From the NCBI RefSeq assembly GCF_002155425.1, contig NZ_MUYG01000005.1, positions 62,001-126,000 of the forward strand: DNA of 64,000 nucleotides, given 5' to 3'. The first letter of the stretch is position 1. Each line of letters begins with the position of its first letter. This stretch comes from Erythrobacter donghaensis. Its GTDB lineage: Bacteria > Pseudomonadota > Alphaproteobacteria > Sphingomonadales > Sphingomonadaceae. The notes beneath the pieces are model-generated. The model did no database searches. It was not told the DNA's origin and was given only the letters and a program-made list of their open reading frames with translations. The position numbers and the translations under genes are program-made. This document shows, piece after piece, positions 1 through 9,564 of this stretch.

Positions 1-609
1 CTCGGGTCGGGGAGCGGGGTGCTGATCGCGCCCGATATCATCGTTACCAATGCCCATGTAATCGAGGACGGGCAGCGCTTCGAAATCGGCCCCGCGCGCG
101 ATGTCGCGGTGACGCTGGCGGTCGACGTGCAGCACGATCTCGCGCTGCTGCGCTGCCAGACGCGCGGCGAGCCGCTGCCGATCCGCATCGGATCGCCGCT
201 GTTTCTGGGCGAGGACATCATGGCCGCCGGCTTTCCGCTGATCGACGTGCTGGGCGCCGATCTCAAGGTCACCACCGGCAATGTCTCGGGCCTGACCGGG
301 GGCGGGGGCGACGTCTCGCGCTTCCAGTTTTCCGCGCCAATCGGATCGGGATCATCGGGGGGCGCGATCATCGACGAGTTCGGCAATCTGGTCGGCGTGA
401 CCTCGGCCAGCCTCGCGCATGATAATATGCGCAACCGGGGATCGATCTCCGAGAACGTCAATTTCGGCATCCGCGCCGCGCTGGTCTATGAAATGGCGGC
501 AGCGGCGGGGGCGGATCTGCCTCCGATGGCGGTCTCGACCGACAATCTGCGCCGCAACGTGGTGGCGCGCGCGCGCAATGCGGTGGTTCCCATCATCGTC
601 CATGCCTGA
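1..609 (+). CDS. Trypsin-like serine protease, 5' end missing
   Basis: The reading frame is open from the first base, so the gene begins left of the window; the GTG at 19 is internal to the conserved fold. The visible 202 residues cover most of a chymotrypsin-fold domain: TNAHV carries the catalytic His (codon at 55), HDLALL the Asp (136) and GSSGG the nucleophilic Ser (355). No PDZ domain follows, so it is not a full DegP. The stop overlaps the next start by 8 bases, which suggests co-transcription with the Ter-type operon downstream. The substrate is unknown. It could act as a stress-activated protease of that system, but this is inferred only from position. Confidence 0.85.
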   Translation, partial: LGSGSGVLIAPDIIVTNAHVIEDGQRFEIGPARDVAVTLAVDVQHDLALLRCQTRGEPLPIRIGSPLFLGEDIMAAGFPLIDVLGADLKVTTGNVSGLTGGGGDVSRFQFSAPIGSGSSGGAIIDEFGNLVGVTSASLAHDNMRNRGSISENVNFGIRAALVYEMAAAAGADLPPMAVSTDNLRRNVVARARNAVVPIIVHA

Positions 610-1744
610 GGATGCGCCGGGCCGGGTCAAGGTCGATCTGCCGACCGGCACGCTGGTGCTGCACGATGTCGCGCCGGAGCGGGTTGCCAACCTGTGCCAA
701 TTCGCCGCACGTGCCAATCCCAAGCGGGGCTTCCTGATCGTTTCGACGGTGCTCGGGCGGCACCTGCCCACGCCGCCGCAGGCCCTGCGCGCCGCCGCCG
801 ATGCACTCGCCGCGCAATTGCCGGGCGATCTGCCCGAACCCGTGCTGTTCTGCGGCATGGCCGAGACCGCGACGGGGCTGGCGCAAGCGGTCTGGGCGGC
901 ATGGCGCGCGCGGCATCCGGGGGCCGAAAGCGCCTATGTCCAGTCGAGCCGCCAGACCGTCACGGGCGCGCGCATCCTGTGCCGGTTCGAGGAAGACCAC
1001 AGCCACGCCGCCAGCCACATGGTGCAGGTCAGCACAGAGGTTGAGCCCATGCTCGCCGCCGCGCACAGCCTTGTCATCGTCGACGACGAATGCAGCACCG
1101 GCGCGACCTTTGTCGAGGCAGCCGAGGCGCTGGTGGCGGCGCTCCCGCAGATCGAACGGGTCGCCTGCGCCAGCCTCACCGATTGGAGCGCAGGAGCCTT
1201 CCTCGCGCGTATGCCGCGCCCCGCCAGCGCCCATTCGCTGATCGCGGGGACGCTGGAATGGACGCCGGGGGCAGGGCAGGTCGCAGCAAAGCTCGCCCCC
1301 ACCGCCAACCGCCACGGCACCGCGCCCGCCAGCGGAATGCGCAGCCGCACCGGGCTGCTCGCACCTGAGGCCGCCATCCGCGCGCCCATCACAACCGCGC
1401 CGGCCGAGCGCGTGCTGGTGCTGGGCGACGGCGAACACGCCTACGAGGCGCTGTGCATCGCCGAGGACATCGCCGCGCAGGGGGGCGTGCCCGCGCTCCA
1501 GTCGATCACCCGCACTCCGGCGCTGCTTGGCCATGCGATGCGCAGCGTCGCCACGCTGGCGGACGCCTATGGCTCGGGCGCGACGTGCCATGTCTACAAC
1601 CTCCTCGCCCACGACCCCGCGCGCATCGTGATCGCCGCCGAGATTGAGGGCGGGCAGGCCGAGGCGCTGCGCGGCTGGCTCGCCGAAGCGGGCAGCGACG
1701 CTGTGGTGGAGCTGGCGCTGTGCCGCTATGGCGAGGCCCCGTGA
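602..1744 (+). CDS. Phosphoribosyltransferase with C-terminal TRSP domain (Ter-associated)
   Basis: A 380-aa protein. The N-terminal half is an orotate-PRTase-like domain with a clear PRPP-binding loop, VDDECSTGAT, near residue 160. The C-terminal part (about 265-380) looks like the TRSP domain known from Ter gene clusters; the name-giving motif appears here as TRTP in SITRTPALLG. In the published model of Ter systems this enzyme takes part in making a nucleoside-like metabolite; the real substrate is unknown. ATG 602 was chosen because it overlaps the protease stop and starts right before conserved sequence; the frame is open further upstream but runs inside the protease gene. The next gene overlaps by GTGA. 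Confidence 0.85.
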   Translation: MPEDAPGRVKVDLPTGTLVLHDVAPERVANLCQFAARANPKRGFLIVSTVLGRHLPTPPQALRAAADALAAQLPGDLPEPVLFCGMAETATGLAQAVWAAWRARHPGAESAYVQSSRQTVTGARILCRFEEDHSHAASHMVQVSTEVEPMLAAAHSLVIVDDECSTGATFVEAAEALVAALPQIERVACASLTDWSAGAFLARMPRPASAHSLIAGTLEWTPGAGQVAAKLAPTANRHGTAPASGMRSRTGLLAPEAAIRAPITTAPAERVLVLGDGEHAYEALCIAEDIAAQGGVPALQSITRTPALLGHAMRSVATLADAYGSGATCHVYNLLAHDPARIVIAAEIEGGQAEALRGWLAEAGSDAVVELALCRYGEAP

Positions 1745-2496
1745 CCGCGCTTACCCCCCTGATTCTCGCCGATCTCGACGACAGCCTGTTCCAGACCCGC
1801 GGCAAGTGCGGCGACTGGCCGGAGGCGCGCCTGCGCCCGATGAGCCGCCTCGTCGATGGCGCGCCGAGCGGCTATGCCACTCCGCCGCAGCAGGGCTTGC
1901 TGGCATGGCTGGCGCATGGCGAGGTCGTCCCCGTCACGGCCCGCAGCCGCGCGGTTCTGGCGCGGGTCGATATCGCGCAGGCCCCGGCGATCTGCGCCAA
2001 TGGTGGCTGCATCCTCACCGCCGAAGGCACGCCCGACAGGGTGTGGCACAAGCGGCTCGAAGCGCTCGCCGCGGCGGGCACGCCCCCGGCGGCGCTCTAT
2101 CCGCAGCTCACCGACACGCTCGACAGCGCCGCCTTCCGCCACTGGATCGTGAGCGATGGGGGGCTCGACCTCTATATCGTCATCAAGAGCAATCTGGGGG
2201 ACGAAGCGGGTCTCGCCGCGCTGGCCGAGGCGCTGGCGGAGCGCCTGCCCCAAGGCTGGCGCATCCACGCCAATGGCAACAACCTCGCCTTTCTGCCGCC
2301 CTGGCTGAGCAAGCGCGCGGCGGTGCGATACTGGCTCGAAGCCGTGCGCCGCGATACGCCCGAGCGGCTGGTGGTGGGGATCGGGGATTCGTGGTCCGAC
2401 GCGGGCTTTCTCGACCTTTGCCATATGGCGATGATCCCGACGCAGGCGCAACTGTGGCAGCACATCGCGCGCGGGCACAGCTGGATCGACGGATGA
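1741..2496 (+). CDS. HAD-superfamily phosphatase of the Ter-type biosynthetic operon
   Basis: A 251-aa HAD hydrolase. Motif I is DLDDSLFQT close to the N-terminus, with both aspartates, and the late acidic motif is GIGDSWSD near residue 215, typical of Cof/SPP-like phosphatases. The GTG at 1741 overlaps the upstream stop as GTGA; an earlier in-frame GTG at 1720 is possible but would give a longer overlap. HAD enzymes are regular members of Ter-linked biosynthetic operons, where they are proposed to dephosphorylate the phosphoribosyl product of the neighbouring PRTases. The downstream gene overlaps by ATGA. Substrate unproven. Confidence 0.85.
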   Translation: MTALTPLILADLDDSLFQTRGKCGDWPEARLRPMSRLVDGAPSGYATPPQQGLLAWLAHGEVVPVTARSRAVLARVDIAQAPAICANGGCILTAEGTPDRVWHKRLEALAAAGTPPAALYPQLTDTLDSAAFRHWIVSDGGLDLYIVIKSNLGDEAGLAALAEALAERLPQGWRIHANGNNLAFLPPWLSKRAAVRYWLEAVRRDTPERLVVGIGDSWSDAGFLDLCHMAMIPTQAQLWQHIARGHSWIDG

Positions 2497-3566
2497 GCGG
2501 CTTTTCCGGCTCCTACGCGCCCGAGGATGTGACCTTCCTGCTGAAGCCCGCCGCGGTCGCGCTGACGGGCGTGGCGGAAAAGGAGGCGCTGATCCAGTCG
2601 GGCGCGCGGCATTATTCCGAGATGCTGTCGGAAGAGCGCTTGCCCGACGACCGCTATCTCGCGCTCTACCGCGCGGCGCTGGCGCGCAATGGCGGGCGCT
2701 TGAGAGCCGATGTCGAGACACTCGCCGATGCCATCGCCGCGCGCCCTGAGACCGCGCGCAGTTGCACGATCATCTCGCTCGCCCGTGCGGGCACGCCCAT
2801 CGGCGTGCTGCTGCGCCGTGCGCTGGTTCGGCGCGGGCTCGATGTGGCGCATTATTCGATCAGCATCATCCGCGGTCGCGGGATCGACCGGGTGGCGCTC
2901 GCCCACATTGCCGCGCTGCGCGGGACGGCGGATGCGGTGTTCGTCGACGGGTGGACGGGCAAGGGCGCGATTACCGGGGAGCTCGAGGCGAGCCTTGCCG
3001 ATGGCACTGCGGGCTTTGCGCCCTTTCTCGCGGTGATCGCCGATCCGGCGGGCTGTGCCAGTCTGGCGGCGACCTCGGAGGATTACCTGATCCCCTCCGG
3101 CATCCTCGGCGCGATCGTCTCGGGGCTGTTCAGCCGCTCGGTGCTGTCGGAAGATCTGGTGGGGCGGGGCGAATTCCACGCCTGCCGCCACCTCACCGAG
3201 CACGCCGCTGCCGACCAGTCGCGTGCCTTCGTCGATGCCATCGAGGCCGCGCCCCTGCCGCAGCAGACCTTTCCGGGCTGGAGCCCCGAAGGCGCGCGCG
3301 AAAGCCGCGCGGCCTGCACCGCGCTGGTGGAAGGGCTGATGAGCGAATACGCCGTCACCAACGTCAACCGCATCAAGCCCGGCATCGCCGAAGCGACCCG
3401 CGCCGTGCTGCGCCGGGTGCCGCACGCGGTGTTCGTGCGCGATCCGAATGATGCGGAAGTGGCCCATCTGCTGCACCTTGCCGATCAAAGCGGCGTAGAG
3501 GTGCACCAGCGGGAACTCGGAAACTACCGGGCCGTAACCCTGATAGCCAAGGCTGGAGACGCATGA
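2493..3566 (+). CDS. StiP-family PRTase with C-terminal PELOTA RNA-binding domain
   Basis: A 357-aa protein. Residues about 90-260 match the second PRTase family of Ter clusters (databases often label it 'cysteine protease StiP'): SLARAGTPIGVLL, HYSISIIRGRGID and VFVDGWTGKG are its hallmark stretches. The last roughly 70 residues (RIKPGIAEATRAVL onward) resemble the PELOTA-type RNA-binding domain that usually ends this family. Its start and stop overlap both neighbours by ATGA, so translation is probably coupled across the operon. Known of the family: association with TerD/TelA systems. Inferred: action on a nucleotide-like substrate, perhaps with RNA binding. Confidence 0.85.
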   Translation: MSGFSGSYAPEDVTFLLKPAAVALTGVAEKEALIQSGARHYSEMLSEERLPDDRYLALYRAALARNGGRLRADVETLADAIAARPETARSCTIISLARAGTPIGVLLRRALVRRGLDVAHYSISIIRGRGIDRVALAHIAALRGTADAVFVDGWTGKGAITGELEASLADGTAGFAPFLAVIADPAGCASLAATSEDYLIPSGILGAIVSGLFSRSVLSEDLVGRGEFHACRHLTEHAAADQSRAFVDAIEAAPLPQQTFPGWSPEGARESRAACTALVEGLMSEYAVTNVNRIKPGIAEATRAVLRRVPHAVFVRDPNDAEVAHLLHLADQSGVEVHQRELGNYRAVTLIAKAGDA

Positions 3567-4480
3567 TGACCAAAGCCGTCGACCTGGGGGCCACGCTCTA
3601 CATCCCGGTGCAGCACCCGCGCCTGCCCGAGCTGCTGGCGGGGGCCAATCCCGATCTGCGCTCGGTGGTGATCTGTCTGGAGGATTCGCTGCACGAGGCG
3701 GACGTGGGCGCCGCGCAGGAGGTGTTCACCGCGATCCTCAGGATGCTTGAGGCGGTGCCGCCGCAGCTGATCGTCTATACCCGCCCGCGCTCGCCCGCCA
3801 TGCTCAGCTGGATGCAGGCGCAGCCGGGGATCGCGCGGCTGGCGGGCTTCGTCTTGCCCAAGATCACCACTGCGAACCTCGCCGACTGGCTGGCGCGGCT
3901 GGAGGGTTTCCTGCACGGGATCATGCCCACCATCGAGAGCGCCGAGGCTTTCGACCGCGCCGCGCTCACCCGGCTGGCGGGCGCGCTGGCGCCGCTGGGC
4001 GAGCAGGTTCATGCGGTCAGGATCGGCGGGAACGACATCCTCAACGTCCTCGGCGTGCGCCGCTCGCGGGAGCGGACGGCCTATGACGGGCCGCTCGGCC
4101 TCGCCATCTCCACCATGGCAAGCGTGTTCCTGCCCGAGGGGCTGGCGCTGTCGGCCCCGGTGTTCGAGCATTACGCCCAGACCGATCTGCTGCGTGAGGA
4201 AGTCGCGCGCGATCTCGAGCATGGCCTGCTCACCAAGACCGCGATCCACCCCTCGCAGGTGGCGATCATCCACGAGGCGTTGCGCCCCGCCGCCAGCGAG
4301 GTCGAGGACGCGCGCGCGATCCTTGCGCGCGAGGCGCGGGCGGTGTTCGGGCAGGGGGGCAGCATGTGCGAGCCGACCACCCATGCGCGCTGGGCCGCAG
4401 GCGTGCTCGACCGGGCAGGCGTGCATGGCATCGCCGGGGCCGCACCGGGGCTTCCGCAAGCGCCCACCCGGGTCGCCTGA
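3563..4480 (+). CDS. HpcH/HpaI aldolase / citrate-lyase beta (CitE)-like protein
   Basis: A 305-aa TIM-barrel lyase of the CitE family. LYIPVQHPRLPELL near the start, SVVICLEDSL and IMPTIESAEAF are the recognisable family stretches, and the acidic residues of CLED and IES are likely Mg-binding. Two ATG codons in tandem (3563 and 3566) are possible; the first overlaps the upstream stop as ATGA. CitE-like enzymes are a standard part of the Ter-associated operon, where a carbon-carbon bond reaction on a CoA or nucleoside-linked precursor has been proposed. The ATP-grasp enzyme often found in such operons is not in the visible part of this one. Confidence 0.85.
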   Translation: MMTKAVDLGATLYIPVQHPRLPELLAGANPDLRSVVICLEDSLHEADVGAAQEVFTAILRMLEAVPPQLIVYTRPRSPAMLSWMQAQPGIARLAGFVLPKITTANLADWLARLEGFLHGIMPTIESAEAFDRAALTRLAGALAPLGEQVHAVRIGGNDILNVLGVRRSRERTAYDGPLGLAISTMASVFLPEGLALSAPVFEHYAQTDLLREEVARDLEHGLLTKTAIHPSQVAIIHEALRPAASEVEDARAILAREARAVFGQGGSMCEPTTHARWAAGVLDRAGVHGIAGAAPGLPQAPTRVA

Positions 4481-4496
4481 CTCCGCCCGAGCGACC

Positions 4497-5456
4497 GTGC
4501 CCGTCCCCGCCATCTCCAAGCGCCGTCATGCGGAACTGGCCGGGCAGGCGCTCAAATATGTCGCCGAACTGGCGCAGATCGAGCCCTTGAGCCCGGCCTT
4601 CGACCACAAGCTCGAAGCCATCCACACACTCGGTAGCGACGAAATCGCCGCGCTCGGCGCGCGCCATGCGGGCAGCCTCGCCCATGTCGCGCCGCCGCCG
4701 ACCGATGGCATCGCCGCCGCGATTGCCGCGCTGCGGCGCATGGCCGAGAGCCTCGAACCGCTGCGGCAAGGCAATCTGGCGGAAGGCGGCAAGCGCTTCG
4801 GACTGTTCGCCGCCAAGCCCGATCCGGCGGCCTATTTCCGCCGCTACCGCGCCGCGCAAGGCGGCATCGAGGCGGCGCTCGCCCGCCTCACCCGCGAGCG
4901 TGACGGGCTGCTGCGCGCCAATGTCGCGCTCGAGGTGGAGCGCGCCAGCCTCGCCGCGCCGCTGGCGGTGCTGAGCGAACAGACGCTGTTTGCGCAAGAA
5001 GTCGCGCTCACGCTCGAAGCGCGGGCCGATACGATGGCGGCGCGCGAGCCGATGCGCGCGCAGCGGCTGCGCTCCGATGCGCTCCACGCGGTGCGCAGCC
5101 GCCAGCGCGATATCGCAGAAGCCCGCGCGCTCGCCCAGCAGGCGGTGGCGGCAAGGGAGATCGTCACCGATACCAACCGGCGCCTTGTCGAGGGCATCGA
5201 ACAGGCGACCGAGACCATGGTGCTGGTGCTGCGGACCGCCATCGTCGCCGCCCGCCTGATTGCCCGGCAGGAGCTGGTGCTCGACGGGATCGCCAGTCTC
5301 AACCGCGCGGCGAGCAACCTCATCGCCAGCGACGAACCGGTCTGCGCCGAGGCAGACGCGGCTGCCTTGCAGGAGGCCTTCGCGCGGCTTTACCACGCAC
5401 TCGACCAGCTTGATCACGAGCGCGCGGCGATCACCACCCTTTCCCCAAGCGGTTAG
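4497..5456 (+). CDS. TelA-family toxic anion resistance protein
   Basis: A 319-aa, largely helical protein matching the TelA/KlaA family. Diagnostic stretches are GGKRFGLF (about residue 100), then coiled-coil segments, the ERASLAAPLAVLSEQTLFAQEVAL region, and RQRDIAEARALAQQAVAAREIV; the C-terminal TNRRLVEGIEQATETMVLVLRTA region is also typical. The start was set at GTG 4497, 16 bases after the CitE-like gene; the frame is open upstream but lies inside that gene. TelA proteins accompany Ter proteins and are linked to tellurite and other stress tolerance by an unknown mechanism. Its position at the end of the PRTase-HAD-StiP-CitE set supports reading the whole block as a Ter-type stress module. 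Confidence 0.85.
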   Translation: MPVPAISKRRHAELAGQALKYVAELAQIEPLSPAFDHKLEAIHTLGSDEIAALGARHAGSLAHVAPPPTDGIAAAIAALRRMAESLEPLRQGNLAEGGKRFGLFAAKPDPAAYFRRYRAAQGGIEAALARLTRERDGLLRANVALEVERASLAAPLAVLSEQTLFAQEVALTLEARADTMAAREPMRAQRLRSDALHAVRSRQRDIAEARALAQQAVAAREIVTDTNRRLVEGIEQATETMVLVLRTAIVAARLIARQELVLDGIASLNRAASNLIASDEPVCAEADAAALQEAFARLYHALDQLDHERAAITTLSPSG

Positions 5457-5512
5457 CCGGTCTAAAGACACCTCCGTCAGCCCCTCGCCGGGCAAAGGAG
5501 ACGTCAAGGGCC

Positions 5513-5995
5513 GTGGGTCTGTTCGAAACGCTCAGGAAGATGTTCGCCGCGCCCGATGTGGAGCCTGCGCCGCCGGCCCGGTCTGCGCCGGCCCCCGCTG
5601 CTCCGCAGCGCCCGGCCTTCGACTACAGCGACGCGCGCATCCCTACCGGCGCGCGCGAGAAGATCGCCGGGATCCTCGCCAGCCTCGACGAGGTCGAAGC
5701 GATGATGGACCGCGAACAGGTGCAGGCGGTCAGCCGCACTGAGATCGAGCTGATGCGCGGCGAACACCTGCCCAAGCTGGTCAAGAGCTACATCGACATT
5801 CCCCCCGCGCACCGCGCCGAGATTTTCCGCACCACCGGCAAATCGGCGAGCTTCATCCTCGAGGAAAGCCTCGAGGCGATGCAGGGCCGGATCGACGAGA
5901 TCGCGCGCAATCTCGCGCAGCACGATCTGGATGCCTTCGCCAGCAACGCGGCCTTCATCAGCCGCCGCTACAGCGACAATGATCCCTTCCGCTAG
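5513..5995 (+). CDS. Unrecognised 160-aa protein downstream of telA
   Basis: I do not recognise the family. The protein begins with GTG, has a proline/alanine-rich linker at residues about 15-40 (PAPPARSAPAPAAPQRP), and then a mostly helical domain with many charged residues: IPTGAREKIAGILASLDEVE, then MRGEHLPKLVKSYIDIPPAHR. It has no signal peptide or membrane segment. It follows telA by 56 bases on the same strand, so it may be the last gene of the Ter-type operon; in Bacillus telA homologues sit next to xpaC, but I cannot show that this protein is an XpaC homologue. Its stop codon overlaps that of the convergent YciI gene (CTAG). Confidence 0.7.
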   Translation: MGLFETLRKMFAAPDVEPAPPARSAPAPAAPQRPAFDYSDARIPTGAREKIAGILASLDEVEAMMDREQVQAVSRTEIELMRGEHLPKLVKSYIDIPPAHRAEIFRTTGKSASFILEESLEAMQGRIDEIARNLAQHDLDAFASNAAFISRRYSDNDPFR

Positions 5996-6279
5996 GCCCA
6001 GTCGCCCAGCAGCGGGGTGAATTCGTCCACCCGGATCAGCTGCCACACCCCGCCGGTGAGGTAGGGATCGTCTGCCAGCAGCGCGCGCGCGGCGGCTTCG
6101 TCTTCGGCCTTGACGATCAGCAGCGAGCCGATGATCAGGCCATCCGCGCGCTTCAACGGGCCGACGATCACGAAATGCTCGGCATTGGCGTGGATGAATT
6201 CGAGATGCGCGGGGCGATGGATCGCGCGCAGCCGTCCGCCGTCTTCGCCGTCGCGGCAGTGAAAGCAGAACATCCGCAT
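5992..6279 (-). CDS. YciI-like protein
   Basis: A protein of about 95 aa of the YCII-related (dimeric ferredoxin-like) family: FCFHCRDG at the start, RPAHLEFI, a central GPL, then DPYLTGGVW and a C-terminal RVDEFTPLLG. Members are small soluble enzymes or accessory proteins, a few of them dehydrochlorinases or hydrolases; the role here is unknown. I prefer the ATG at 6279, which sits 8 bases after a GGGGG ribosome-binding sequence; the frame extends to a TTG at 6300. It converges on the Ter-type operon and is transcribed away from putA. Confidence 0.8.
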   Translation of the reverse strand: MRMFCFHCRDGEDGGRLRAIHRPAHLEFIHANAEHFVIVGPLKRADGLIIGSLLIVKAEDEAAARALLADDPYLTGGVWQLIRVDEFTPLLGDWA

Positions 6280-6358
6280 TCGTGTGGCCCCCATGAACAA
6301 GGCCGGACGCTACCCGCAAGGCGTGGCCGGGGCAAGGGAGGCCGGACCGTTGCAAAGA

Positions 6359-6375
6359 CTGCGCTTGAAGCGCAG
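6359..6375. promoter_or_regulatory. Inverted repeat in the putA upstream region
   Basis: CTGCGCT-TGA-AGCGCAG, a perfect 7-base inverted repeat 55 bases before the putA start codon. It could be an operator for a proline-responsive regulator. No regulator gene is adjacent, and GC-rich palindromes also occur by chance. Confidence 0.3.
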
Positions 6376-6429
6376 CCTTGCGGGGTTCAGAGCGCCGCAA
6401 ATCCCCCGAATCGTTTCAGGTAACACTCT

Positions 6430-9400
6430 ATGGCCGACTACACCGCCCCCTCCAGCATCGACCGCGCCGACCTTCGCCGCGCCTATCGTCAGGACGAGGA
6501 GGCCTGCATCGCCGAGCGGCTGGAGCAGGCCGCGCCGGCGGCGCGGGTGCATGATGCGGCGGCGGGTCTTGCGATCGACCTGATCGAGGGCGCGCGCGCC
6601 AAGAAGGCGAGCGGGATCGACGCCTTCCTCCAGCAATATGGCCTCGATACCGAGGAAGGCATCGCGCTGATGTGCCTTGCCGAAGCGCTGCTGCGCGTGC
6701 CCGATGCCGCGACCGCCGATGCGTTGATCCGCGACAAGATCGGGAGCATCGAATGGGGCGAGCATCTCGGCGAAAGCTCCTCCACCTTCGTCAACGCGGC
6801 GACCTTCTCGCTGATGCTGACCGGCGAAGTGCTCGATCCGCCCGAGGCGCGCCAGCGCGGCATGGGCGGGGTGCTCAAGCGCGCGATTAACCGGCTGGGC
6901 GAACCAGTGATCCGCACCGCGACCGCGCAGGCGATGAAGATTCTGGGCGGCCAGTTCGTCTTCGGCCGCACTATCGACGAAGCGCTGAAGCGCGCCGCGC
7001 CCGAACGCGCGCGCGGGATTACCCACAGCTTCGACATGCTCGGCGAAGCGGCGATGACTTTTGAGGATGCCGAGAAATACCGGCAGGCCTATGAAGGCGC
7101 GCTCACCCGGCTGGCGCGCGAAGCGGGGGCGGGGGTCGTCGCGTCGCCGGGGATCTCGGTCAAGCTCTCGGCGCTGCATCCCAAATACACGATCTTCCAC
7201 GCGGAGCAGACGCGCGCGGACATGGTGCCGGTGGTGAAGGCGCTGGCGCTGAAGGCGCGGGATGCCGACATCCACTTCACCATCGACGCTGAGGAGGCCG
7301 AGCGGCTGGAACTCAGCCTCGACATCATCGAGGCACTGGTCGCCGATGACGAGCTGTTCCAGCGCCCCGATGGCAGCCGGTGGGAAGGCTTCGGCCTTGC
7401 CATTCAGGCCTATCAGAAGCGTGGGCTTGCGGTGTGCGACTGGGCGGGCAAGCTGGCCCGGCGGCACGGGCGCAAGCTGTTCGTGCGGCTGGTGAAGGGC
7501 GCCTATTGGGACAGCGAGATCAAGCTCAGCCAGGTGGGCGGCTATACCGATTACCCGGTCTTCACCCGCAAGGTCGCGACCGATGTCAGTTACCTCGCCT
7601 GCGCCGCGCGGCTGTTTGAACACGCCGACGTGATCCACGCCGCTTTCGCCACGCACAACGCCTACACCATCGGCGCGATCAAGAGCATGAGCGAGGGCAA
7701 GCCTTTTGAGTTTCAACGCCTGCACGGCATGGGCGAGGAAGTTTACGAGGCGCTCCACGCGATCGAGGGCAACCGGAAGACGCCGGTCAGGATCTATGCG
7801 CCGGTCGGCGGGCACAAGGAATTGCTCGCCTATCTGGTGCGCCGGTTGCTGGAAAACGGGGCCAATACCAGCTTCGTCAACCGCATGGGCGATGCCGATA
7901 TTCCGGCGGAAGAACTCGTGGGCGATCCGGTGGCGGAGCTTGCCGCGATGAGCCCGCGCCGCAATCCCGCCATCCCGCTGCCCAAGGACATCTTCGGTGC
8001 GCGCCGGAACAGCGCCGGGATCGACCTCAGCGACCCGACCGTGCGCGAGCCGCTGATGGAGCGGCTGACCGCGCTCGAGAGCAAGCCCTGGCGCGCCGAG
8101 CCGACGTTCCTCGCCAGCACCGCCGGGGAAATCGCCCCCATCACCATGCCGCACGATCTCTCCGTGGTGATCGGCACCCGCCGCGATGCGACCGCAGAGG
8201 AGGTGGACGCCGCTGTCACCCGTGCTGCCGCGATCCAGCCCGGCTGGGACTCGCTCGGCGGAGAGGCGCGCGCGCTACTGCTCGAGGAAGCTGCCGACCT
8301 GTTCGAGGCGCATACCGACGAATTCCTCAGCCTGTGCCAGCGCGAGGCGGGCAAGACCCTGCTCGACGCGGTGCTCGAACTGCGCGAGGCGGTGGACTTC
8401 CTGCGCTTCTACGCTGCCGAAGCGCGCCGGCAGTTCGCTGCGCCCACCATCCTGCCCGGGCCGACGGGGGAGGAGAACTCGCTCTCGCTCCACGGGCGCG
8501 GGGTGTTCGCCACGATCAGCCCGTGGAACTTCCCGCTGGCGATCTTCACCGGCATGGCCGCCGCCGCGCTCGCCGCGGGCAATGCGGTGATCGCCAAGCC
8601 TGCCGAACAGACCCCGCTGATCGCCGCGTTGGCGGTGAAGCTGTGCCACGAAGCGGGCATCCCGGCCGAGGCTTTCCAGCTACTCCCCGGCGCCGGGCCG
8701 GTCGGGCAGATGATCACCGCCCACCCCAGGCTGGCGGGTGTCGCCTTCACCGGATCGACCGAGACCGCGCAGGCGATCAACCGCACGCTCGCCGGGCGCG
8801 ACGGCCCGATCGCTACGCTGATCGCCGAGACCGGCGGGCAGAACGCGATGATCGTCGACAGCTCGGCCCTGCCCGAACAGGTGGTGCGCGACGTGCTGGC
8901 GAGCGCTTTCCAGAGCGCGGGGCAGCGCTGCTCGGCCTTGCGGGTGCTTTACCTTCAGGACGACATCGCCGACCCCATGCTGGCGATGATCCGCGGCGGG
9001 TTCGAGGCGCTGAACATTGGCGATCCGGCGGATTTCGCCACCGATGTCGGCCCGGTGATCGACCCCGACGCGCAGGCGCGGCTCGAACGCCATGTCGCGC
9101 GCTGCCTCGCCTCGGAACGCACCGTCACCCGCTTGCCGCTCCCGCCGGGGGTGGAGAAGGGCTGCTTCGTCGCGCCCACCATCGTCGAGATCGGCGGGAT
9201 CGGCGATCTGGCGCGCGAGCATTTCGGCCCCGTCCTCCACGTCGCGCGCTTCAAGGCGAGCCAGCTCGGGCAGGTGGTCGAGGACATCAACGCCAGCGGC
9301 TACGGCCTCACGCTCGGCCTGCACAGCCGCATCGCCGAAACGCGGCGCTTTGTTCAGGCGCGTGCCAGAGTGGGCAATTTCTACGTCAACCGTAACCAGA

Positions 9401-9564
9401 TCGGTGCGGTGGTGGAAAGCCAGCCCTTCGGCGGCGAGGGGCTTTCGGGCACCGGGCCCAAGGCGGGCGGGCCGCACTACCTCGCGCGCTTTGCCACCGA
9501 ACGGGTGATGACCATCGACACCACCGCCGCGGGCGGCAACGCGAGCCTGCTGGCGGCGGGTTGA
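6430..9564 (+). CDS. putA: Bifunctional proline dehydrogenase / glutamate-semialdehyde dehydrogenase PutA
   Basis: A 1044-aa enzyme that oxidises proline to glutamate in two steps. Residues about 140-450 form the FAD-binding proline dehydrogenase barrel (VSPGISVKLSAL, FVRLVKGAYWDSEIK). Residues about 500-1010 are the NAD-dependent aldehyde dehydrogenase, with ISPWNFPLAIF, catalytic Glu800 in AETGGQN and nucleophile Cys834 in SAGQRCSALR. The N-terminal ribbon-helix-helix DNA-binding domain of trifunctional PutA (E. coli, about 1320 aa) is absent, so it is unlikely to repress its own gene. The length fits the short bifunctional class. It stands alone, with 11 bases to the next gene. Confidence 0.97.
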   Translation: MADYTAPSSIDRADLRRAYRQDEEACIAERLEQAAPAARVHDAAAGLAIDLIEGARAKKASGIDAFLQQYGLDTEEGIALMCLAEALLRVPDAATADALIRDKIGSIEWGEHLGESSSTFVNAATFSLMLTGEVLDPPEARQRGMGGVLKRAINRLGEPVIRTATAQAMKILGGQFVFGRTIDEALKRAAPERARGITHSFDMLGEAAMTFEDAEKYRQAYEGALTRLAREAGAGVVASPGISVKLSALHPKYTIFHAEQTRADMVPVVKALALKARDADIHFTIDAEEAERLELSLDIIEALVADDELFQRPDGSRWEGFGLAIQAYQKRGLAVCDWAGKLARRHGRKLFVRLVKGAYWDSEIKLSQVGGYTDYPVFTRKVATDVSYLACAARLFEHADVIHAAFATHNAYTIGAIKSMSEGKPFEFQRLHGMGEEVYEALHAIEGNRKTPVRIYAPVGGHKELLAYLVRRLLENGANTSFVNRMGDADIPAEELVGDPVAELAAMSPRRNPAIPLPKDIFGARRNSAGIDLSDPTVREPLMERLTALESKPWRAEPTFLASTAGEIAPITMPHDLSVVIGTRRDATAEEVDAAVTRAAAIQPGWDSLGGEARALLLEEAADLFEAHTDEFLSLCQREAGKTLLDAVLELREAVDFLRFYAAEARRQFAAPTILPGPTGEENSLSLHGRGVFATISPWNFPLAIFTGMAAAALAAGNAVIAKPAEQTPLIAALAVKLCHEAGIPAEAFQLLPGAGPVGQMITAHPRLAGVAFTGSTETAQAINRTLAGRDGPIATLIAETGGQNAMIVDSSALPEQVVRDVLASAFQSAGQRCSALRVLYLQDDIADPMLAMIRGGFEALNIGDPADFATDVGPVIDPDAQARLERHVARCLASERTVTRLPLPPGVEKGCFVAPTIVEIGGIGDLAREHFGPVLHVARFKASQLGQVVEDINASGYGLTLGLHSRIAETRRFVQARARVGNFYVNRNQIGAVVESQPFGGEGLSGTGPKAGGPHYLARFATERVMTIDTTAAGGNASLLAAG

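What the first reader, a model, noticed from the sequence alone, without database searches (positions are those of the whole stretch)
1..5995. Ter-type stress module with a trypsin-like protease at its head
Seen: protease, TRSP-PRTase, HAD, StiP-PRTase-PELOTA, CitE-like lyase and TelA genes joined by overlapping starts, plus an unknown 160-aa protein at the end. Known: this gene set was described in comparative genomics as a Ter-associated pathway for a nucleoside-like metabolite, whose product has never been identified. Inferred: the protease, with intact triad, overlaps the PRTase gene and may belong to the system as an effector. The usual ATP-grasp and TerD/TerC genes are not visible and may lie left of the window.
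Basis: partly seen in the sequence, partly recalled or inferred. Interest (0 to 1): 0.75.

Follow-up and report, generated by a model that had tools for sequence, protein, structure and literature searches.

The report
Protease built into Ter stress operon
A bacterial stress-response operon thought to make an unknown nucleoside-like signal carries, at a nearly fixed position in several bacterial groups, a protease fused to one of the system's own sensor-type domains, which offers a concrete handle on what the signal does.

Summary
The finding is real, and its main inference is largely right. The window cuts the protease gene. The whole gene (window -554 to 609, 387 aa) encodes a divergent TerD-like domain, a linker and a trypsin-like domain with His, Asp and Ser intact. 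Directly upstream lie four TerD-family genes and terC. The usual ATP-grasp gene (PF15632) was not found in this genome, but precedes the protease in at least 18 of 24 related loci.

Linkage is strong. In the host family, 3 of 119 genomes have StiP over cut-off; among listed matches only these 3 have the TerD-trypsin gene. In Pseudomonas, 26 of 26 TerD-trypsin copies lie 1,972-2,006 bp upstream of StiP; 26 of 32 StiP copies have it. Elsewhere most StiP operons lack it. Two such loci keep truncated remnants in place. It is under purifying selection.

The TerD-trypsin architecture is in print (2008, one P. syringae protein, uncharacterised). The listings of nine full-text searches showed nothing on its operon linkage; the key 2012 Ter paper could not be read.

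Best reading: a cytosolic, TerD-tethered protease, the proteolytic output of the Ter pathway, perhaps gated by its metabolite. Gating and substrate are inferred.

The parts
1..609 (+). C-terminal part of the TerD-like/trypsin fusion protease. The whole gene is 387 aa, L006:5446-6609 (C9:61446-62609; window -554 to 609). Catalytic His204 codon 55-57, Asp231 codon 136-138, Ser304 codon 355-357. Outside the window, directly upstream on the same strand, belong also (locus L006, position = window + 6000): terD 1201-1782, double-TerD gene 1839-3017, terC/DUF475 3062-4126, terD 4206-4784, terD 4853-5434
   Evidence: Trypsin_2 1.9e-22; TerD in relatives; triad columns in 26 of 26 proteins aligned, own included; fold of the protease domain. 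Upstream genes: PF02342 6.7e-45, 5.2e-26, 7.7e-84, 6.9e-72 and PF04332 7.9e-108
602..1744 (+). PRTase_2-TRSP phosphoribosyltransferase
1741..2496 (+). HAD-type phosphatase (GTG start)
   Evidence: PF12710 4.7e-5, below cut-off; HAD-IIB subfamily models, weak
2493..3566 (+). StiP domain with C-terminal PELOTA_1 (L7Ae-like RNA-binding) domain
   Evidence: PF11202 1.7e-91, PF15608 2.9e-27; weak L7Ae matches in PDB, best E 0.0019
3563..4480 (+). CitE-like C-C bond lyase
   Evidence: PF15617 1.7e-75
4497..5456 (+). TelA family protein (GTG start)
   Evidence: PF05816 3.8e-31
5513..5995 (+). 160-aa helical protein, conserved companion of TelA, no named family
   Evidence: no Pfam or NCBIfam family at E 0.01; weak scattered matches at E up to 5; 12 of 13 homologues found have a TelA hit in the same stretch; helical model, no PDB match at E 0.001

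Best explanation
The protease is a dedicated subunit of a Ter stress-response system. It is a soluble cytosolic protein. An N-terminal domain derived from TerD, without TerD's conserved acidic motifs, tethers it to the Ter machinery and holds or releases a C-terminal trypsin-like domain. The PRTase-TRSP, HAD, StiP/PRTase-PELOTA and C-C lyase enzymes encoded with it are thought to make a nucleoside-like signal. The most likely logic is: stress leads to metabolite; a TerD-type domain, possibly the protease's own, senses it; the protease is unleashed on a cellular or Ter target. Shown: the fusion, the intact triad, the fixed operon position, co-occurrence with StiP, purifying selection. Inferred: cytosolic location, gating, identity of the trigger, substrate.
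For: Fusion: Pfam TerD over cut-off in relatives (L039 1.4e-12, L038 8.3e-8); their profile finds PDB TerD 2kxt at 7e-16; profile comparison of nine relatives' N-termini with TerD 98.4%, and of the eight Erythrobacter-type N-termini, own included, with those 97.1%. Triad columns kept in 26 of 26 proteins. Linkage: 3 of 3 StiP-positive genomes among 119; 26 of 26 copies in Pseudomonas, 1,972-2,006 bp from StiP; 24 of 80 StiP loci, that is 24 of the 75 with at least 1.5 kb before TRSP. Truncated remnants at the same place in L062 and L068. dN/dS 0.17-0.22. No membrane-type hydrophobic stretch. Published view that Ter PRTases and HAD make a nucleotide-type signal and that TerB/TerD might sense it (PMC7824862, passages); TerD listed among nucleotide-derivative binders (PMC7159879, passages).
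Against: No ligand, substrate or proteolytic activity is shown. The protease is optional: it is missing at 6 of 32 Pseudomonas StiP copies, at 51 of 75 usable StiP loci including every enterobacterial one in the set, and, among listed rows, in 11 of 12 StiP-positive genomes of the phylum sample. On plasmids 2,562 records match StiP but 135 match the Pseudomonas-type protease. No clear substrate gene tracks it: the only annotated-type genes enriched beside it are TelA and the 160-aa gene, in 11 of 26 protease-bearing loci, all alphaproteobacterial, so kinship may explain it. The best trypsin matches outside Ter loci are in proteins that mostly look exported, so the domain is not from a known effector lineage. 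In E. coli terC plus terD or terE sufficed for tellurite resistance without the biosynthetic half or the protease (PMC8779313, results section). The own TerD-like domain matches TerD itself only weakly (52%; no Pfam hit).
Confidence: 0.5

Rival explanations
1. Quality-control or maturation protease of the Ter machinery: the TerD-like domain brings it to TerD/TerC assemblies, where it trims or degrades Ter subunits; it does not respond to the metabolite.
For: TerD-related domain on the protease and TerD/TerC genes in the same operon; protease domain structurally closest to HtrA/Deg proteases, Z about 20; terCD expression alone stunts E. coli and terA or terZ relieves it (PMC8779313, results section), so dosage control would be useful.
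Against: Most Ter operons in the set lack it (51 of 75 usable StiP loci), so it is not needed for assembly. In relatives with ATP-grasp it stands between that gene and TRSP, inside the biosynthetic half; in our locus it stands between terD and TRSP, which does not decide.
Confidence: 0.3
2. Proteolytic switch acting on the biosynthetic enzymes themselves (turning metabolite synthesis on or off).
For: 8-nt overlap with TRSP in the window and close spacing to TRSP in most protease-bearing loci; co-occurrence with StiP rather than with TerD alone.
Against: The same enzymes work, presumably, in loci without the protease; in L054 and L055 a ~1.1-kb gene separates it from TRSP, and L056 and L057 have a gap of that size.
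Confidence: 0.12
3. Chance neighbour or hitchhiker of an unrelated operon.
For: Occurs in a minority of StiP loci (24 of 75 usable).
Against: 26 of 26 Pseudomonas copies at nearly the same distance from StiP; TerD-derived N-terminus; presence in two distant parts of the StiP tree.
Confidence: 0.02

Closest known systems
Ter-associated nucleoside-like-metabolite operon (Anantharaman, Iyer and Aravind 2012; recalled and via citing papers, the paper itself not held)
   Same: PRTase_2-TRSP, HAD, StiP/PELOTA, C-C lyase, TelA, TerD, TerC
   Different: carries a TerD-like/trypsin protease in the operon; ATP-grasp gene not found
TerD-Tryp protein YP_273108.1 of Pseudomonas syringae (PMC2605481, 2008, passages)
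   Same: same domain order; called functionally uncharacterised there. That it equals the copies at StiP operons in P. syringae-group loci (L085, L087, L100; grouping recalled) is inferred, not checked by accession
   Different: listed as a lone architecture; the passages seen do not mention an operon
ter operon of plasmid pRBL16, Pseudomonas citronellolis SJTE-3 (NZ_CP015879.1; PMC8779313)
   Same: annotated gene order ATP-grasp, trypsin-like peptidase, PRTase, Trehalose-6-phosphatase (HAD position), StiP, lyase, HAD, two terD, terB, terC, two terD
   Different: has ATP-grasp and TerB; the published genetics covered terZABCDE, and a term search of the main text held found no protease, peptidase, StiP or ATP-grasp
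HtrA/Deg family (DegS, DegP)
   Same: protease-domain fold, Z about 20
   Different: no PDZ match in Pfam, no membrane-type segment; TerD-like domain instead
Trypsin-like proteases fused to defence proteins (Hachiman, AVAST, Lamassu, DRT; PMC12799240, abstract and passages)
   Same: trypsin domain fused to a system-specific domain; PADLOC RT-Protease_XI match 1.2e-17 for the Pseudomonas copy, 1.1e-10 for the own copy
   Different: no partner nuclease or reverse transcriptase recognised in the locus; the own copy scores higher with a DegP model (58 bits) than with RT-Protease (39 bits)

Membership tests
Ter-associated biosynthetic operon | PRTase_2 with TRSP, StiP with PELOTA, C-C bond lyase in one operon | tested here: met
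Ter-associated biosynthetic operon | HAD phosphatase in the operon | tested here: inconclusive
   PF12710 E 4.7e-5 but below curated cut-off; weak HAD-IIB models below cut-off; same position as the phosphatase gene of pRBL16
Ter-associated biosynthetic operon | TerD and TerC genes adjacent | tested here: met
Ter-associated biosynthetic operon | ATP-grasp PF15632 gene (usual; not treated here as defining, since 5 of 24 protease-bearing loci showed none) | tested here: not met
   only CarB matches in the genome (the model also rings in 13 of 14 control genomes); no tblastn match in L003, L004, L006; relatives
TerD domain family (N-terminal half of the protease) | sequence match to TerD profiles | tested here: inconclusive
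   own copy: no Pfam hit, hhalign 52% to TerD; homologues: Pfam TerD over cut-off in the 2 tested, 98.4%, own type to these 97.1%
TerD domain family (N-terminal half of the protease) | conserved acidic motifs (DLDAS; GDN.TG.G.GDDE) | tested here: not met
   invariant in the 8 TerD proteins of A6, not seen in the 20 rows (by eye); that these bind calcium is recalled
Trypsin (S1) peptidases | fold and His-Asp-Ser triad | tested here: met
   activity not tested
HtrA/Deg proteases | PDZ domain and export to the periplasm | tested here: not met
   no PDZ match in Pfam scans; highest 19-residue hydropathy mean 1.38, at residue 252, not at the N-terminus
Signal-gated defence proteases | activation by a nucleotide-type signal | not testable with these tools
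   needs biochemistry

The most novel reading that the evidence does not exclude
The TerD-like/trypsin protein is the receptor and effector of the never-identified Ter metabolite: its degenerate TerD domain binds the product of the PRTase/HAD/StiP/lyase pathway and switches on intracellular proteolysis, making these Ter operons a second-messenger-type system with a protease output.
Probability: 0.25. Interest if true: 0.85.

Novelty: new variant of a known kind. Interest (0 to 1): 0.56.

Why it matters
The product of the Ter biosynthetic operon has been predicted since 2012 but, as far as I know (recalled), not identified, and its receptor is unknown. A protease that carries a TerD-derived domain and sits with the biosynthetic genes gives a measurable output (peptidase activity) with which to fish for the metabolite. 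The Pseudomonas-type protein matches 135 plasmid records, 126 of them Pseudomonas and 127 covering at least 80% of the query. I looked at the gene neighbourhood of one, pRBL16, a plasmid shown to confer high tellurite resistance (PMC8779313, results section), so a tractable environmental model strain exists.

Tried and rejected
Tried without result: a named family for the 160-aa protein. There was no Pfam or NCBIfam family at E 0.01, only weak scattered Pfam matches over 12 members (best 0.0032), no TerD relation, no PDB match at E 0.001 by fold, and best E 0.16 by sequence. I suspected XpaC from memory and could not confirm it. A co-occurring substrate or pro-nuclease: none recognised among the gene clusters printed (top 40 and last 14 shown); TelA and the 160-aa gene are enriched, but only in alphaproteobacteria. 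The own protease in phages: no match at 1e-5. The own protease in plasmids at 1e-15: none, although the Pseudomonas type is common there. A first trypsin profile drifted onto TerD domains after iteration and was discarded; counts use the un-iterated profile. Foldseek and VIA rows covered mainly model residues 179-357, so they say nothing on the N-terminal domain.

Rejected: ATP-grasp present elsewhere in the genome (the match is CarB). Protease as a chance neighbour. Best extra-Ter trypsin matches as known effectors: they mostly look exported, judged by eye from hydrophobic N-termini in the 15 proteins extracted from 16 loci.

Limits: mostly only 4 candidates per genome were scored (9), and the match lists were cut. 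ATP-grasp absence in other loci rests on open reading frames, checked by tblastn in 12 stretches. The StiP tree is a quick one with several long branches. The 2012 Ter paper is not held, so what it says of trypsin domains is unknown to me. The listings of nine paper searches (several listings capped) showed no report of the operon linkage.
Full report
What is there. Window 1-5995 holds seven co-directional genes: the end of a trypsin-like protease, PRTase_2-TRSP (602-1744), a HAD phosphatase (1741-2496), StiP-PELOTA (2493-3566), a CitE-like C-C lyase (3563-4480), TelA (4497-5456) and a 160-aa protein (5513-5995). Pfam supports each except the last; the HAD match is below its curated cut-off. 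The protease and TRSP genes overlap by 8 nt and the next three junctions by 4 nt (read).

The left side. The window is C9:62001-126000 of a 3.37-Mb genome in 11 contigs. Reading the neighbouring DNA shows TerD, a double-TerD protein, TerC/DUF475, TerD and TerD, then the protease 11 nt after the last terD gene. In locus L006 (position = window + 6000) these are 1201-1782, 1839-3017, 3062-4126, 4206-4784, 4853-5434 and 5446-6609. The full protease is 387 aa. The expected ATP-grasp gene was not found: PF15632 matches only an 1,108-aa frame that is carbamoyl-phosphate synthase large chain, whereas two true members from relatives score 117 and 134 bits, and tblastn with nine ATP-grasp proteins finds nothing at 1e-4 in the own-locus stretches L003, L004 and L006.

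The protease. The C-terminal half is a trypsin-like domain whose predicted structure (whole model mean pLDDT 78.6, pTM 0.54) aligns to DegS/HtrA at Z about 20, rmsd 2.0-2.4 over 156-161 residues for the five leading rows. The His, Asp and Ser columns are conserved in all 26 proteins aligned, own included. The N-terminal half gives no Pfam hit in our protein at E 1, but the relatives from Croceibacterium (L038) and genome G057 (L039) match TerD over its cut-off. Profile comparison gives 98.4% between the N-termini of nine relatives and eight TerD proteins, 97.1% between the eight Erythrobacter-type N-termini and those relatives, and only 52% directly to TerD. The relatives' profile finds the TerD structures in the PDB (2kxt, 7e-16). 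The acidic motifs invariant in the TerD proteins compared are missing by eye. There is no hydrophobic segment of membrane type: the highest 19-residue mean is 1.38, at residue 252; a cytosolic place is inferred.

Linkage. Host family: StiP over cut-off in 3 of 119 genomes (11 of 119 at E 0.001, the other 8 partial and below cut-off). In the same sample the protease matches reach into the N-terminal half (from residue 105 or before) in those 3 alone among the listed rows; the other listed rows begin at residue 146 or later (list cut). G041, of the same genus, shows no StiP match and only trypsin-domain matches. In the two other positive genomes the gene order from terD to lyase is the same; G057 has an ATP-grasp gene between terD and the protease. 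Phylum sample: StiP over cut-off in 12 of 398; among the listed rows a full-length TerD-trypsin appears only in the own genome, so 11 of the 12 seem to lack it (list cut, mostly 4 candidates scored). Pseudomonas sample: TerD-trypsin 26 copies in 23 of 199 genomes, StiP 32 copies in 29 of 199; 26 of 26 proteases have StiP downstream on the same strand at 1,972-2,006 bp, and 26 of 32 StiP copies have the protease.

Among 80 named StiP loci, 24 carry the protease, or 24 of the 75 with at least 1.5 kb before TRSP. They are sphingomonads and Asticcacaulis, Pseudomonas and a Burkholderia. The ATP-grasp gene lies directly before the protease in 18 of these 24 by a simple spacing rule; in L057 it overlaps the predicted protease start and was missed by the rule, and in five (L053, L063, L070, L095, L110) none was found. 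Of 14 genomes searched whole, the four whose locus has the protease show it, nine show nothing at 1e-40, and that of L062 shows a trypsin-only match. In L062 a C-terminal 43-residue remnant, and in L068 an N-terminal 73-residue remnant, stand directly upstream of TRSP, so in those lines the gene was lost. On a quick StiP tree (82 loci, 77 labelled) presence needs at least 7 changes and falls in two parts of the tree. Between our gene, E. ramosus and E. oryzae, dN/dS is 0.17-0.22 over the whole gene, 0.22-0.31 in the TerD-like part and 0.12-0.20 in the trypsin part.

Plasmids. The Pseudomonas-type protein matches 135 plasmid records, 126 of them Pseudomonas, 127 covering at least 80% of the query, while StiP matches 2,562 records, mostly enterobacterial and 130 Pseudomonas; the own protease found none at 1e-15. 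Pseudomonas citronellolis pRBL16 shows ATP-grasp, trypsin-like peptidase, PRTase, a phosphatase, StiP, lyase, HAD, terD, terD, terB, terC, terD, terD in order; other plasmids were not opened. Curing this plasmid lowered the tellurite MIC from about 250 to about 40 ug/mL, and terC with terD or terE sufficed in E. coli (PMC8779313, results section). A term search of its main text found no protease, peptidase, StiP or ATP-grasp.

How it likely works. Published proposals, seen in passages, hold that the PRTases and HAD enzymes of Ter systems make a nucleotide-type signal, that TerB and TerD might sense it (PMC7824862), and that TerD might recognise specialised nucleotide derivatives (PMC7159879). 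A protease with a TerD-derived domain in the biosynthetic operon fits a signal-gated proteolytic output. A related principle is shown experimentally for trypsin-like proteases that activate a pro-nuclease in Hachiman and AVAST (PMC12799240, abstract and passages), but no such partner was recognised here. Against this, most Ter operons in the set do without the protease, and its best trypsin matches outside Ter loci mostly look exported. I therefore give the effector reading 0.5, a maintenance role in the Ter complex 0.3, a switch on the enzymes 0.12, and chance 0.02.

The 160-aa protein. Homologues were found in 13 loci including ours, 12 with a TelA hit in the same stretch; the predicted model is helical (mean pLDDT 81.5) and has no PDB match at E 0.001. 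It is probably a TelA partner of unknown family.

Novelty. The TerD-Tryp architecture is in print (PMC2605481, one protein, passages). The listings of nine full-text searches showed no report of its operon linkage, but the 2012 paper that defined the Ter pathway is not held. I rate it a new variant of a known kind.

Noticed in passing
L054:6942-8006, L055:6994-8049: A ~350-aa gene with a DUF4236 domain (PF14020, tested in L054 only) sits between the protease and TRSP in some sphingomonad loci; pRBL16 also has a DUF4236 gene beyond the ter genes. L056 and L057 have a gap of the same size there.
   Followed up: partly
L062:8019-8144 and L068:7734-7952: Truncated remnants of the TerD-trypsin gene directly upstream of TRSP: the C-terminal 43 residues in Bradyrhizobium iriomotense, the N-terminal 73 residues in Azomonas.
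   Followed up: partly
L062, L076, L118: Rhizobial StiP/TRSP modules with no TerD or TerC hit in the stretch held: the pathway apparently can stand without neighbouring Ter genes.
   Followed up: no
L106:13300-13938 and its cluster: A vWA protein (PF00092), perhaps TerY-like (recalled), is in 11 of 51 usable loci without the protease and 0 of 26 with it; kinship may explain it.
   Followed up: partly
L134-L147, L153: Trypsin-like proteins with varied N-termini, mostly exported-looking by eye (some with Sel1-like repeats), share the trypsin domain and an NINFAIK-like tail with the Ter protease.
   Followed up: partly
window 2493-3566: Pfam describes StiP as a cysteine protease, but the conserved DGWTGKG loop looks like a PRPP-binding loop (recalled motif), fitting the phosphoribosyltransferase reading; the C-terminal part weakly matches L7Ae structures.
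   Followed up: partly
window 6430-9564: A large gene downstream looks like proline-utilisation protein PutA and bounds the operon (read by eye, no search run).
   Followed up: no
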